Below, piece after piece: positions 4,980 through 13,291 of a DNA stretch of 63,300 bases. Both the position numbers and the translations under genes were made by a program. The DNA comes from Thermovorax subterraneus (GTDB taxonomy: Bacteria; Bacillota; Thermosediminibacteria; Thermosediminibacterales; Thermosediminibacteraceae). The notes under the pieces are model-generated. The model was given only the letters and a program-made list of their open reading frames with translations. It was not told the DNA's origin and did not search any database. The first letter of the stretch is position 1, and each line of letters starts with the position of its first letter. Where the stretch lies: contig JAKIHM010000013.1 in the NCBI GenBank assembly GCA_021608145.1, positions 1-63,300 of the forward strand. Reading direction: 5' to 3'.

Positions 4980-5438
4980 TTAATACAAACCACGTAAATA
5001 TTCGTCCGAATCAATCACTTTTAATCCGAATGCCGTTAAATAAGCGGCTGTTACCCCCATACCTTCTTTTAATGTTCCGTTAAATTTCCCGTCGTATATA
5101 AACCTGCATCCGCAGGAGGGACTTTTCGATTTTAAGATTGCAGTATCGGCACCTATAAGCTCTGCCAATTTTAACATTTCTTTTGCGCCTCTGATAAAAT
5201 ATTCCGTCACATCCCTTCCGTCTCTGGTGAGGACTACCGCTTTCCCTTTAATCACTTCAAAACCGTCTTTACCAATTATTTCAGCTGGCGTACGAGGTGT
5301 AGGCAACCCCCCGGCTTGTTCTGGACAGAAAGGTATGGCTTTTTTGGTTCTTACCACATCCTCAAAAACCGCATGGCAACTATTTTTCCCATCGTATCTC
5401 GTATTAAAACCTGCAAGGCATGCGCTAATTATAATCAA
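4980..5438 (-). CDS. DUF523 family protein
   Basis: A 152-residue protein matching DUF523. It begins with the family motif SACLAGFNTRYDG and has a CPEQAGGLPTPR segment and a KSPSCGC motif with two close cysteines (about 107-109). No biochemical function is firmly established for the family; the conserved cysteines suggest metal or redox chemistry, which is inference. The start is TTG, with GGTGGAG five bases upstream, and it overlaps the mutS2 stop codon (TTGA). Translation is therefore probably coupled to mutS2. It is the last gene of the pheST-zapA-polX-mutS2 run. Confidence 0.85.
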   Translation of the reverse strand: MIIISACLAGFNTRYDGKNSCHAVFEDVVRTKKAIPFCPEQAGGLPTPRTPAEIIGKDGFEVIKGKAVVLTRDGRDVTEYFIRGAKEMLKLAELIGADTAILKSKSPSCGCRFIYDGKFNGTLKEGMGVTAAYLTAFGLKVIDSDEYLRGLY

Positions 5439-7829: not shown

Positions 7830-9551
7830 TCATTTTTTTTTGCTCAGTATTTCCATCAAACGAGGAAGCCTAAAGGTGTTTATCACATCTTCTTTCTCTA
7901 ACCAAGCCCTTCTTGCCACCCATACCCCGTACTTTATGTCGTTTAATCCTTCCAGCTCATGAGTATCGGTGTTGATTACGACTTTTACCCCCATTTCCTT
8001 CGCCTTTCTCGCAAGTTCATCGTTCAAGTCAAGCCTATCTGGAGATGAATTAATTTCTAGCACGGTATTCGTTTCGGCCGCAGCTTTCATTATAGCATCG
8101 ACATCTATTTCATAAGGATCCCTTTTTGTTAACATTCTCCCCGTTGGATGGGCGATTATATTAACATAGGGGTTATAGATGGCTTTTAAGACTCGCCGAG
8201 TTAACTTTTCTTTATCTTGACTGAAGCCGCTGTGAATAGAAGCAATTACGATGTCCAATTCTTTTAATATATCGTCGTCAAAGTCCAAAAGGTTATTGCT
8301 CAAAATATCAACTTCTATTCCGGACAAAATCCTTAAATCTTTTATTTCGTTATTCAGCTTCTTTATCTGTTCCAACTGCCTAAATAAACGCTCTTCATCT
8401 AACCCGTGAGCAATCTTCAAAGATTTTGAATGATCGGTAATGGCTATGTATTCATAACCCTTTTCCCTAGCTTTCATCGCGATTTCTTCTATAGAATTTA
8501 ATCCGTCGCTCCAATTGCTATGGATGTGAAGGTCGCCCTTTATATCACCAATTTCTAAAGATTGAGGCAACTTCCTCTTTTGAGCCGCTTCTATTTCTCC
8601 CCGGTTTTCCCTGAGCTCTGGAATTATATAGGGCATGTCGAGCAATCCGTAAATTTTCTCTTCGCCTTCAGGGTACAATAATTCGCCACTTTTTATCCGG
8701 ACAACATGGTTCTTTTGAATATCATAACCCTTTTCCCTGGCTATTTCTCTCAACCTGCCAACGTGTTCCTCACTACCTGTAAAATAATGCAAACAGGACC
8801 AAAACGAAACGGGCTCTACAACATGAAAATTAACCATAATCCCTAAATCCAACAACACTTTCAACGTTTCTTTGCTTCTTTCTTTGACCTCTTTTATCCT
8901 GTGGTAAGTTAACAATCCATCTATTACTTCATCTGACTTATTAGAAGAAATGACAATCTCGAGTTCGCTTATTAACTCTTGTTTTCTCCTCAGGTCTCCT
9001 GCCGCATCGACTTTTTCAACTGCAGGATGCGACCGTAGCATTGCTATTATTTCTTCCGCTAGAAAAAGGGCGGTGGGCAAAAGTACTTTACCCATCGTCC
9101 CCTTTAGCATTTCTATTCCCTTTAATATGCCTTGTTCCGTCTTCACTCCAATCCCTGGTAGTCCTCTTAATTTACGCTGCTTTGCTGCCTGCTGTAGCTC
9201 TTCAATTGTGGTTATATTCAACTTTTCATAAATAGTCCTTATTTTTTTTGCCCCCAGGCCAGGAATCTTAAGCATTTCCACTAGTCCCTTAGGTACTTCA
9301 TCTTTTAGTTTCTCGTAATACTCGCACGTTCCGCTATTTATAATTTCCTTTATCTTTTCTTTGAGAGCCTTTCCAATTCCTTCTATACCGGCAAGGGAAG
9401 AGGTTTTTACTAAATATTCAACATCCTCAGTAAGATTTGCGATTGCACGGGCGGCTTTTCGGTAGGCCCTGATTTTAAAAATATTTTCCCCCTTTATTTC
9501 CAGCATATCGGCAATTTCAGAAAAGATAAAGGATACGAGATAATTTTTCAT
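7830..9551 (-). CDS. polX: PolX-family protein with PHP nuclease; polymerase site degenerate
   Basis: A 573-residue protein with the layout of bacterial PolX: an N-terminal helix-hairpin-helix 8-kDa region (GIEGIGKALKEKI; IPGLGAKKI; LPGIGVKT), a nucleotidyltransferase palm and a C-terminal PHP domain. The PHP metal ligands are intact: DLHIH (340-344), ITDHS, GIEVDI, ASIHSGF, IAHPTGR and NTDTH. That predicts a 3'-5' exonuclease or AP-endonuclease-like activity. The polymerase site is not intact. The usual DxD after GSxRR is ELE here (E196, E198), and the third aspartate is N241 (in VNFHVVEP). Polymerase activity is probably lost or altered. It lies between zapA and mutS2, as in other Firmicutes. 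Confidence 0.93.
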   Translation of the reverse strand: MKNYLVSFIFSEIADMLEIKGENIFKIRAYRKAARAIANLTEDVEYLVKTSSLAGIEGIGKALKEKIKEIINSGTCEYYEKLKDEVPKGLVEMLKIPGLGAKKIRTIYEKLNITTIEELQQAAKQRKLRGLPGIGVKTEQGILKGIEMLKGTMGKVLLPTALFLAEEIIAMLRSHPAVEKVDAAGDLRRKQELISELEIVISSNKSDEVIDGLLTYHRIKEVKERSKETLKVLLDLGIMVNFHVVEPVSFWSCLHYFTGSEEHVGRLREIAREKGYDIQKNHVVRIKSGELLYPEGEEKIYGLLDMPYIIPELRENRGEIEAAQKRKLPQSLEIGDIKGDLHIHSNWSDGLNSIEEIAMKAREKGYEYIAITDHSKSLKIAHGLDEERLFRQLEQIKKLNNEIKDLRILSGIEVDILSNNLLDFDDDILKELDIVIASIHSGFSQDKEKLTRRVLKAIYNPYVNIIAHPTGRMLTKRDPYEIDVDAIMKAAAETNTVLEINSSPDRLDLNDELARKAKEMGVKVVINTDTHELEGLNDIKYGVWVARRAWLEKEDVINTFRLPRLMEILSKKK

Positions 9552-9568: not shown

Positions 9569-9838
9569 TTACCTGTTTTTTTCTTCATCGAACAGCTCTA
9601 AAAATTCTTCGTATTCGGCTTTTAACTTGAAATATTCGTCGGCTATATTTAATGCCGTCAGTACCGCTAAGTTAATGCGGCTAAGTCTGGGGTTGAGTTT
9701 TAAAAGTAATTTCATTTTTTGGTCAACGTACTTTGCTAGCTGCTTAATATATTCTTCTGACGCTGCACCCTTTATATAGTAATCTTCTCCGCAAATATCC
9801 ACCTTTACTCTTGTTACATCCGGCTCTTTTTCCATCAT
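9569..9838 (-). CDS. zapA: Cell division protein ZapA
   Basis: An 89-residue protein of the ZapA family, which binds and bundles FtsZ at the division ring. It has the typical short N-terminal beta region (TRVKVDICGEDYYIKG), then a helix ending in NLAVLTALNIADEYFKLKAE that forms the coiled-coil dimer. The sequence starts with two successive ATG codons. GGAGG lies four bases before the first and seven before the second, so the second (9835) may be the one used. The order pheT-zapA-polX-mutS2 is conserved in Firmicutes, and the short spacing suggests cotranscription. Confidence 0.9.
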   Translation of the reverse strand: MMEKEPDVTRVKVDICGEDYYIKGAASEEYIKQLAKYVDQKMKLLLKLNPRLSRINLAVLTALNIADEYFKLKAEYEEFLELFDEEKNR

Positions 9839-9853
9839 TTATCCTCCCACTCT

Positions 9854-12256
9854 TTACTCCCTCAGGCGCCCATCAAACCTTTCAATTATGCTTCTAATTA
9901 TCTTGGCGTGCAGCTCATTTATTTCTTCATCCTTCAGCGTTCTGTCTTTAGCCCTATACCTCAATGAAAAAGCAATACTTTTGTATCCTTCCGGTATTTG
10001 TTCACCTCTGTAGATATCAAAAAGTTCTAGGTTCTCCAATAGCTCCCCACCCACTTCCCTTATAGCATCCATCAAATCGCCAACAGCAATATCTTCTTTT
10101 ACAACTATAGCCATATCTCTCTCTGCGGCCGGGAATTTAGGAAGTGGCTGGTACTTTATTTCAGTTAATGCATTATCCAACAAGATTTCCATATCAAGTT
10201 CAGCAACATATACCCTTTTATCTTCCATGTCATAATTTTCCATCACGTCTGGATGAATTTCTCCTAGATAGCCAGCAATTTTACCCCCTACTAAAATACT
10301 AGCAGTTCTTCCGGGATGTAAGGCAAAATGCTGGTCCTGATTAAATTTATGATTATCTATCTTTAACATTGAAAGAATCGCCTCTACTATTCCTTTCAGG
10401 TAATAAAAATCTACATTTTCTTCATAAACTGCAAGGCCTATCATTTTTCTTTCTCTAGGTAGTTCTTTCAAAGGCAACTCATTGGGTAGGAAAATCTTCC
10501 CCACCTCGAAAATGCGTATCCTCTTCTGATTTTGATTTAAATTAAACTTAACCACTTGGAGAATCCCATCGAGCAGCGTGGTCCTCATTACACTATGTTC
10601 TTCACCTAGAGGGTTCATTAACTTTATAGCTTTGCGAATTTCATGATTAAGCGGCACTTTTAGTTTATCAAAGGCACCAGGACTGATAAATGAATAAGTG
10701 TATATTTCCGAAAATCCCAAATCCGAAAGGGTCTTTTTTATATTATCTTCTAATTTTTGCCTCTTACTTAGTACACCACATGCAGCAATACTTCCCGGTA
10801 AAGTTGATGGAAGATTGTCGTACCCGTAAATCCTGGCAATCTCTTCGGCTATATCAGCCAGTTGAGCTATATCTGTCCTATAAGTTGGAACTATGACGAA
10901 TGTCTTTCCATCTTTGTCTTGAACATCCATCCCGAGTCTTTTTAAGATGCTAACCATGCATTCTTTTGAAATTGAAGTACCTAACAATGCATTTATTTTT
11001 TCCACCCTGAGTTGCAACTCTCTTGGCCGGACTATTTCAGGATATACATCTGCGTATTCTTTAATGACTTTTCCTGCTCCCAACTTTTCAATGAGCTCGC
11101 AGGCCCTATCTGCGGCTATTTCGGCAAGATTCGGGTCAATTCCTTTTTCATAGCGCAAAGACGCCTCAGTCCTAATACCTAGTCTTTTTGCAGTGCGGCG
11201 GATGTTAGAGCCCAGGAAATTTGCCGATTCTAAAAGTACTGTCCTTGTTTTATCAGTAACTTCAGTGTTTTCTCCCCCCATTACTCCTGCCAAAGCTATA
11301 GGTCCTTTTTTGTCTGCGATCACCAGAGTATCTTCTGTTATCTCCCTTTCCTGTCCATCTAATGTAATAAGCTTTTCCCCAGCCTTACCTCTGCGAACTA
11401 TAATTGAACCGTCACTCAATTTATCATAATCAAATGCATGTAACGGCTGACCTAATTCCAGCATAACATAATTTGTAATGTCGACAATATTGTTTATAGG
11501 GCGAATTCCGCAAAGCTGCAATCTTCTTTGCATCCAGAGGGGAGAGGGTTCAATTTTTACATCTTCTATTATCCTTGCGATGTACCTTTTACAAAGGTCA
11601 GGAGCCTCTACTGTCACTTTCACTCTTCCAAAAATCTCGTCGATTTGCCTTATTTCCCCAGAGGTCGAAAAAGACACCTTCAAAGGAACGTTGAAGGTGG
11701 CTGCAGTTTCCCTTGCAATGCCTACGATGCTAAAACAATCAGCTCTATTAGGGGTAAGTTCAAATTCCACCACTGCATCTTCAAGTTCTATGTACTCTTT
11801 AATATCTTTTCCCACCGGAGCATCTTTCGGCAAAATCAAAAGCCCTTTTTTCATATCTTCCGGCAGGCCGTGGTCATCCAATCCCAATTCTTTTGCCGAA
11901 CAAAGCATCCCCTCCGATTCCATTCCTTTTATATTCTGGACTCCTATCTTTTTACCACCCTCTATTGTGGCTCCGGGCAGGGCCACAGCTACCTTATCGC
12001 CTTTTTTGATATTATAGGCTCCCGTTATTATTTGTAAGACCCTTTCTTTTGTATCTACTTTTACTAACAAAAGCTTATCCGCATGCGGGTGCCTTTGTAT
12101 CTGCAAAATTTCGCCTATAACCACATTTTTTATGTCTCGTCCCACACATTCTATAGTCTCTACACTTGATCCCGACATGGTCATTTTCTCAGCAAATTCT
12201 TTCACACTGCCTTTATAATCAACAAACTCTCTTAGCCATTTCATCGGTACCCTCAT
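9854..12256 (-). CDS. pheT: Phenylalanyl-tRNA synthetase beta subunit
   Basis: An 800-residue beta chain of the (alpha-beta)2 PheRS, of normal bacterial length. The order is an EMAP-type tRNA-binding domain (about 40-150), the B3/B4 editing domain that hydrolyses Tyr-tRNA-Phe, a B5 DNA-binding-like domain (about 400-475), the inactive synthetase-like core, and a C-terminal anticodon-binding FDX-ACB domain (about 705-800; KFPAAERDMAIVV). The start ATG has AAGGAGG nine bases upstream. It lies 18 bases after pheS and 16 before zapA, so a single transcript is likely. Confidence 0.98.
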   Translation of the reverse strand: MRVPMKWLREFVDYKGSVKEFAEKMTMSGSSVETIECVGRDIKNVVIGEILQIQRHPHADKLLLVKVDTKERVLQIITGAYNIKKGDKVAVALPGATIEGGKKIGVQNIKGMESEGMLCSAKELGLDDHGLPEDMKKGLLILPKDAPVGKDIKEYIELEDAVVEFELTPNRADCFSIVGIARETAATFNVPLKVSFSTSGEIRQIDEIFGRVKVTVEAPDLCKRYIARIIEDVKIEPSPLWMQRRLQLCGIRPINNIVDITNYVMLELGQPLHAFDYDKLSDGSIIVRRGKAGEKLITLDGQEREITEDTLVIADKKGPIALAGVMGGENTEVTDKTRTVLLESANFLGSNIRRTAKRLGIRTEASLRYEKGIDPNLAEIAADRACELIEKLGAGKVIKEYADVYPEIVRPRELQLRVEKINALLGTSISKECMVSILKRLGMDVQDKDGKTFVIVPTYRTDIAQLADIAEEIARIYGYDNLPSTLPGSIAACGVLSKRQKLEDNIKKTLSDLGFSEIYTYSFISPGAFDKLKVPLNHEIRKAIKLMNPLGEEHSVMRTTLLDGILQVVKFNLNQNQKRIRIFEVGKIFLPNELPLKELPRERKMIGLAVYEENVDFYYLKGIVEAILSMLKIDNHKFNQDQHFALHPGRTASILVGGKIAGYLGEIHPDVMENYDMEDKRVYVAELDMEILLDNALTEIKYQPLPKFPAAERDMAIVVKEDIAVGDLMDAIREVGGELLENLELFDIYRGEQIPEGYKSIAFSLRYRAKDRTLKDEEINELHAKIIRSIIERFDGRLRE

Positions 12257-12274: not shown

Positions 12275-13291
12275 CTAAAACTGTTCCAAGAATCTTAAGT
12301 CGTTTTCGAAAAACAGCCTCATGTCGTTAATACCGTATTTTAACATAGCTATCCTTTCTATTCCCATGCCAAAAGCAAAACCCGTAACTTCTTCAGGGTC
12401 GTATCCACAATTTTTAAGCACGTTCGGATGAACCATGCCACAGCCTAGAATTTCCAGCCACCCCGTATAAGAGCAAACCCTGCATCCCTTTCCATCGCAC
12501 GCAATACAAGATATATCCATTTCAGCACTCGGCTCGGTAAACGGAAAGTAGCTGGGCCTGAACCTCACCCTTCGTTCCTTGCCGTAAAACATCTTTGCAA
12601 AAGTTATAAGAGTGCCCTTCAAATCGGCCATTGTCACCTTTTCCCCAACCACAAGTCCTTCAACTTGGTGGAATACAGGAGAATGAGTCGCATCCACTTC
12701 ATCGGAACGATAAACTCTTCCCGGAACAATCACTTTGATAGGAGGCTTCTTTTTTTCCATTGTCCTTATTTGTACAGGAGAGGTATGAGTTCGCAAAAGA
12801 ATCTCTTCAGTTATATAGAACGTATCCTGCATATCTCTCGCCGGATGATCTTTCGGTATGTTTAGAGCTTCAAAATTGTAATAATCAAGCTCAACCTCCG
12901 GGCCTTCAACAACTTCATATCCAAGACCGAGAAAGATTTCTTTTATCTCGTCTAAAACCAATGTCAGCGGATGTTTGTGTCCCAAGATAACTTTTGATGG
13001 GACCGTAACATCTATTTTTTCCTTCTGCAGCCTTATTTTTTTTGCGATTTCTTTTAGTTCCAAGCCTTTTTGAAAAAACTTTTGTTCTAATTCTTCTTTT
13101 ACCTCGTTCGCTAATTTCCCTATGGCAGGCCTTTCTTCCGGTGAAAGATTTGCCATTCCCCTCAATATTGTAGTGAGTTTGCCCTTCTTCCCTAAATATT
13201 TTATCCTAATATTATTCAGTTCCCTTAGGTCTTTTGATTTCTCAATTTCATGCAAAGCTTCTTCTTTCAGATATAACAAGTCTTCCTTCAC
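12275..13291 (-). CDS. pheS: Phenylalanyl-tRNA synthetase alpha subunit
   Basis: This 338-residue catalytic subunit activates Phe and transfers it to tRNA-Phe. After an N-terminal coiled coil come the class II motifs: motif 1 around [20 protein letters not shown], motif 2 ([14 protein letters not shown]) and motif 3 ([15 protein letters not shown]). The start is GTG at 13291, preceded by GAGGAGG at a nine-base distance. Upstream lies an attenuator-like leader (13292-13540) with a strong terminator but no recognisable T-box, so the control of this operon may differ from the usual Firmicute scheme. Confidence 0.98.

What the first reader, a model, noticed from the sequence alone, without database searches (positions are those of the whole stretch)
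8829..8966. PolX with all three polymerase aspartates replaced
In PolX-family polymerases two aspartates in a DxD after GSxRR and a third aspartate further on hold the catalytic metals. Here they read E196-L-E198 and N241. The glycine-serine of the GSxRR motif is also changed (GDLRR). The N-terminal helix-hairpin-helix region and every metal ligand of the PHP nuclease are kept. This suggests a protein that keeps DNA binding and nuclease activity but not DNA synthesis, so its repair role may differ from that of Bacillus PolX.
Basis: partly seen in the sequence, partly recalled or inferred. Interest (0 to 1): 0.6.

Follow-up and report, generated by a model that had tools for sequence, protein, structure and literature searches.

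The report
Noncanonical PolX: polymerase lost, nuclease kept
A DNA repair protein in a heat-loving Clostridia bacterium has lost the residues a polymerase needs to copy DNA but keeps an intact DNA-trimming nuclease; it is a new example of the 'noncanonical PolX' class described in 2022, so largely expected.

Summary
The ORF at 9551..7830 (-) encodes a 573-aa PolX. Aligned to Thermus PolX, the catalytic aspartates D198/D200/D243 read E196/E198/N241, and GSxRR reads GDLRR. The other domains, and all nine PHP metal ligands, are intact. The interpretation (polymerase dead, nuclease and DNA binding kept) is well supported but already known. Prostova et al. 2022 defined 'noncanonical PolX' (27.5% of prokaryotic PolXs), showed that Deinococcus members lack polymerase activity but keep 3'-5' exonuclease, and noted that altered Firmicutes PolXs almost always occur with nuclease-less NHEJ and, in Clostridia, beside zapA and mutS2. 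This locus fits each point. What I add is local detail: in this family (relatives of Fervidicola) every PolX read is altered, but by different substitutions (EEN, KEN, DDN, NDD, NYD, KVE), while most of the sister family is DDD, so loss was repeated and stepwise. Palm plus fingers evolve about 1.5 times faster relative to PHP than in the DDD sisters (bootstrap 1.1-2.2). Reservation: two glutamates remain, so loss of polymerase activity is inferred, not measured.

The parts
7830..9551 (-). PolX-type protein, 573 aa (8 kDa HHH, thumb, palm, fingers, PHP)
   Evidence: NCBIfam PRK08609 PolX 588.6 bits against cut-off 426; Pfam HHH_8, HHH_5, DNA_pol_B_thumb, PHP
8964..8966 (-). E196, at the position of catalytic Asp 1 (Tth D198)
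8958..8960 (-). E198, at the position of catalytic Asp 2 (Tth D200)
8829..8831 (-). N241, at the position of catalytic Asp 3 (Tth D243)
8985..8999 (-). GDLRR (185-189), altered GSxRR dNTP-binding motif
   Evidence: Tth GSARR 187-191, D. radiodurans GDVRR
8760..8786 (-). Fingers motif YFTGSEEHV (256-264): GS kept, Lys of canonical PolX replaced by E261, Asn replaced by V264
   Evidence: canonical relatives read mostly GSKEHN
7833..8549 (-). PHP nuclease domain (residues 335-573) with complete ligand set HHDHEHHDH
9569..9838 (-). ZapA-like protein just upstream of polX (named from sequence and synteny, not by profile)
   Evidence: ZapA is reported as a usual Clostridia/Bacilli neighbour in PMC9226535
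5435..7804 (-). MutS2 just downstream of polX (named from sequence and synteny, not by profile)
   Evidence: MutS2 reported as a usual neighbour in PMC9226535
9854..13291 (-). pheT (9854-12256) and pheS (12275-13291), upstream (named from sequence and synteny)

Best explanation
This is a noncanonical PolX: a PolX-family protein whose palm can no longer assemble the two-metal polymerase site. The N-terminal 8 kDa, thumb and altered palm/fingers domains serve to hold gapped or broken DNA. The intact PHP domain acts as a Mn-dependent 3'-5' exonuclease / 3'-end cleaner and AP endonuclease. It most likely prepares 3' ends during base excision repair and Ku-dependent end joining, where a separate LigD-type PrimPol and an ATP ligase supply synthesis and sealing and no LigD phosphoesterase is present. 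Shown: residue identities, domain integrity, family-wide occurrence, NHEJ gene content. Inferred: absence of polymerase activity, nuclease activity, role in NHEJ/BER.
For: Triad EEN and GD for GS by alignment. Fingers Lys to Glu and Asn to Val, changes that PMC9226535 lists for altered PolXs. PHP ligand set complete in the window protein and in its whole order. A sister species carries Lys at position 196 (KEN), which makes a working metal site in this lineage unlikely. Palm plus fingers evolve 1.5 times faster relative to PHP than in DDD sisters (95% bootstrap 1.11-2.24; 1 of 120 replicates at or below 1), while the N-terminal to PHP ratio is unchanged at 0.95. Only one full-length PolX in the genome. 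Ku, ligase and PrimPol occur side by side in G000:C11 and no LigD_N is found in any of 22 genomes of the order. Homologues with AEE and ARE triads were measured as polymerase-negative and exonuclease-positive (PMC9226535).
Against: Two glutamates remain where two aspartates sat. PMC9226535 counts Asp or, rarely, Glu as acidic triad members, so only N241 places this protein in the altered class. Palm and fingers show no deletion. The GS of the fingers, the YF steric gate and the palm Arg are kept. dN/dS of palm plus fingers within the genus is only about 0.15-0.22, so the region is still under purifying selection. polX lies beside mutS2 and zapA, not beside the NHEJ genes, so the NHEJ role rests on co-occurrence only.
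Confidence: 0.88

Rival explanations
1. The site still works weakly: E196 and E198 bind a metal with N241, giving slow or Mn-dependent nucleotide addition on a narrow substrate.
For: Two acidic side chains conserved in three of four species of the genus read here; fold, length, GS of fingers and steric gate kept; purifying selection continues. An earlier paper, cited in PMC9226535, reported activity for D. radiodurans PolX (AEE).
Against: Position 3 is the ligand next to the primer 3'-OH (general knowledge of Pol beta D256) and is Asn here; a sister species has Lys at position 1; GS to GD/GG and Lys to Glu, Asn to Val disfavour dNTP binding. The reported D. radiodurans activity was not reproduced (PMC9226535).
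Confidence: 0.08
2. The palm aspartates are elsewhere, that is, the alignment is wrong or other acidic residues took over.
For: None found beyond several acidic residues nearby in sequence (D182, D186, E192).
Against: Ungapped alignment over the palm with some 30 homologues, flanking GxxRR and strand pattern conserved. The AlphaFold model puts 196-202 and 239-245 on strands, and the best PDB hits are Tth PolX entries. The global model is poor (pTM 0.40), so this is only supportive.
Confidence: 0.02
3. A decaying gene on the way to loss, with no remaining function.
For: Relaxed rate in palm and fingers.
Against: PHP and N-terminal domains conserved, dN/dS about 0.1; ORF intact in every family member in which it was found; PHP ligands invariant in the order.
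Confidence: 0.02

Closest known systems
Noncanonical prokaryotic PolX (Prostova et al. 2022, PMC9226535), e.g. Deinococcus radiodurans PolX (AEE, 2w9m)
   Same: Altered triad, GD in place of GS, changed fingers dNTP residues (Lys to Glu as in D. radiodurans), intact 8 kDa/thumb and PHP; Clostridia neighbours zapA and mutS2; NHEJ without LigD nuclease
   Different: Triad EEN keeps two acids; no palm or fingers deletion; embedded among canonical Thermosediminibacterales PolXs, so probably a separate origin from the main Bacteroidetes/Deinococcus cluster
Canonical bacterial PolX (Thermus thermophilus 3au2; Bacillus subtilis)
   Same: Full five-domain order, PolX equivalog profile, PHP ligands, operon context
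   Different: DDD triad and GS motif of the palm absent here
PolX-like proteins of Actinobacteria (PMC12926913)
   Same: PHP domain without polymerase function
   Different: Those lack the polymerase domain physically; here it is retained but altered

Membership tests
Bacterial PolX (PolX1) | 8 kDa HHH + thumb + palm + fingers + PHP order | tested here: met
Canonical PolX | Three acidic metal ligands in the palm | tested here: not met
   EEN
Noncanonical PolX | At least one triad position not acidic | tested here: met
   N241; definition in PMC9226535
Noncanonical PolX | Changed dNTP-binding residues in palm/fingers | tested here: met
   GS to GD, Lys to E261, Asn to V264; fingers GS and YF gate are retained
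Noncanonical PolX | Deletions in palm or fingers (common, not universal, so not defining) | tested here: not met
Noncanonical PolX | Intact PHP ligands HHDHEH[C/H]DH | tested here: met
Noncanonical PolX | No polymerase activity, 3'-5' exonuclease activity | not testable with these tools
   needs purified protein

The most novel reading that the evidence does not exclude
In this family the polymerase function of PolX was lost several times in parallel and the residual palm took on a selected non-catalytic role (a DNA- or protein-binding platform for end joining), with PrimPol replacing its synthesis.
Probability: 0.25. Interest if true: 0.4.

Novelty: new member of a known kind. Interest (0 to 1): 0.17.

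Why it matters
It adds a thermophilic clostridial lineage to the known polymerase-dead PolXs. The order carries graded intermediates (DDD, DDN, NDD, NDN, EEN, KEN, NYD, KVE) within a short evolutionary distance, which makes it a convenient set for asking in what order a polymerase loses its catalytic residues while keeping its nuclease.

Tried and rejected
Sequencing error or misalignment: rejected, because the change is shared by independent genomes of the genus and the palm is ungapped. A second, canonical PolX in the genome: not found, only PHP-only matches. Co-variation of triad loss with NHEJ: all 9 altered PolXs of the order lie in Ku-positive genomes and all 3 Ku-negative genomes (one genus) are DDD, but 6 Ku-positive genomes are DDD as well; worked by hand Fisher p is about 0.10, with phylogenetic dependence, so it is not evidence. 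Association of GS loss with triad loss on the tree: too few independent pairs (3). AlphaFold model: palm locally confident but pTM 0.40, so used only for strand positions. The literature search for Pol beta D256 substitutions gave nothing directly usable.

Full report
OBSERVATION. The reading frame 9551..7830 on the minus strand encodes 573 residues. NCBIfam calls it PolX (PRK08609, 588.6 bits against a cut-off of 426), and Pfam finds HHH_8, HHH_5, Pol beta thumb and PHP. The best solved relative is Thermus thermophilus PolX (3b0y/3au2, E about 1e-123), followed by Deinococcus radiodurans PolX (2w9m, E 6e-84). In the residue-level alignment E196, E198 and N241 stand at Tth D198, D200 and D243, and D186 at S188 of GSARR. 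The nine PHP ligands are all present (HHDHEHHDH), palm and fingers are full length, and the lysine aligned with the Pol beta dRP-lyase Lys72 (K66 here; this correspondence is my own knowledge) is kept. One qualification: two of the three replacements are Asp to Glu.

RELATIVES. The host's nearest named relative is Fervidicola ferrireducens (93% identical PolX, L036; Clostridia, Thermosediminibacterales). PolX was found in eight of the nine genomes of the family examined (one 83%-complete genome, G001, has none), and none of the eight has a fully acidic triad: EEN (window, L008, L009), KEN (L007), DDN (L010), NDD (L011), NYD (L012), KVE (L023). In the sister family nine of the ten full-length PolXs are DDD and one is NDN (L015), nested with strong support next to a DDD protein. 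Other members of the class read QED, NDE and NNF. Because L010 lost only position 3 and L011 only position 1, at least part of the loss within this family is most simply read as parallel. A tree made without the trait columns needs at least four changes between acidic and altered triads, three of them forced by well-supported branches.

RATES. With topology fixed and trait columns removed, the ratio of evolutionary change in palm plus fingers to that in PHP is 1.51 times higher in the altered family than in its DDD sisters (120 column bootstraps: 1.11-2.24, one replicate at or below 1). The N-terminal to PHP ratio does not differ (0.95, 0.69-1.49). Pairwise dN/dS in palm plus fingers among the three close congeners is 0.15-0.22, against 0.10-0.12 for PHP. 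Constraint on the polymerase half is thus relaxed but not absent, as expected if it still folds and binds DNA.

GENOME CONTEXT. polX sits between zapA and mutS2, downstream of pheS-pheT (neighbours named from sequence and synteny, not by profile). ZapA and MutS2 are reported as the commonest Clostridia/Bacilli operon neighbours of both canonical and noncanonical PolX (PMC9226535). Elsewhere in the genome (G000:C11, about 103.2-106.1 kb) Ku, an ATP-dependent ligase (ligase domains only, 308 aa) and a separate LigD-type PrimPol lie together. The LigD 3'-phosphoesterase domain is absent from all 22 genomes of the order. This corresponds in content to the 'NHEJ-Nuc' type, although the paper defined LigD as ligase and polymerase in one protein whereas here they are split. 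In that paper 11 of 12 Firmicutes genomes with altered PolX were NHEJ-Nuc.

MECHANISM. Steps shown: residue replacement, intact PHP and N-terminal domains, relaxed rate in the polymerase half, presence of Ku/ligase/PrimPol and absence of LigD nuclease. Steps inferred: no polymerase activity (measured only for the AEE and ARE homologues of Deinococcus, PMC9226535), 3'-5' exonuclease and AP-endonuclease activity, and service as the 3'-end cleaner in base excision repair and end joining. The link with end joining rests on co-occurrence; it is not an operon here, and within the order it is not statistically established.

NOVELTY. Prostova et al. 2022 classified 27.5% of prokaryotic PolXs as noncanonical, with 302 triad variants, small independent groups in Firmicutes and conserved PHP. 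A 2026 survey agrees (PMC12926913: polymerase site conserved in 75%, PHP site in 95% of PolX1). The finding is a new member of that known class. What I did not see described is the fine-grained series of triads within one small family, which is an incremental addition.

Noticed in passing
G000:C11:103258-106076 (L046:6259-9077): Compact NHEJ cluster with a split LigD: Ku, stand-alone ATP ligase on the opposite strand and stand-alone PrimPol; Ku and PrimPol found throughout the order except in one genus (G010, G011, G015), which lacks both.
   Followed up: partly
L007, residues 195-199 of its PolX: A sister species has Lys at catalytic position 1 (K196-L-E198 ... N241), a charge reversal in the former metal site.
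   Followed up: partly
L015 (G013): An NDN PolX nested beside a close DDD protein (L013) of the same genus: a recent independent loss of two catalytic aspartates.
   Followed up: partly
window 4980-5438 (-): Small protein (begins MIIISACLAGFNTRYDG, resembling DUF523) directly after mutS2; not tested by profile.
   Followed up: no
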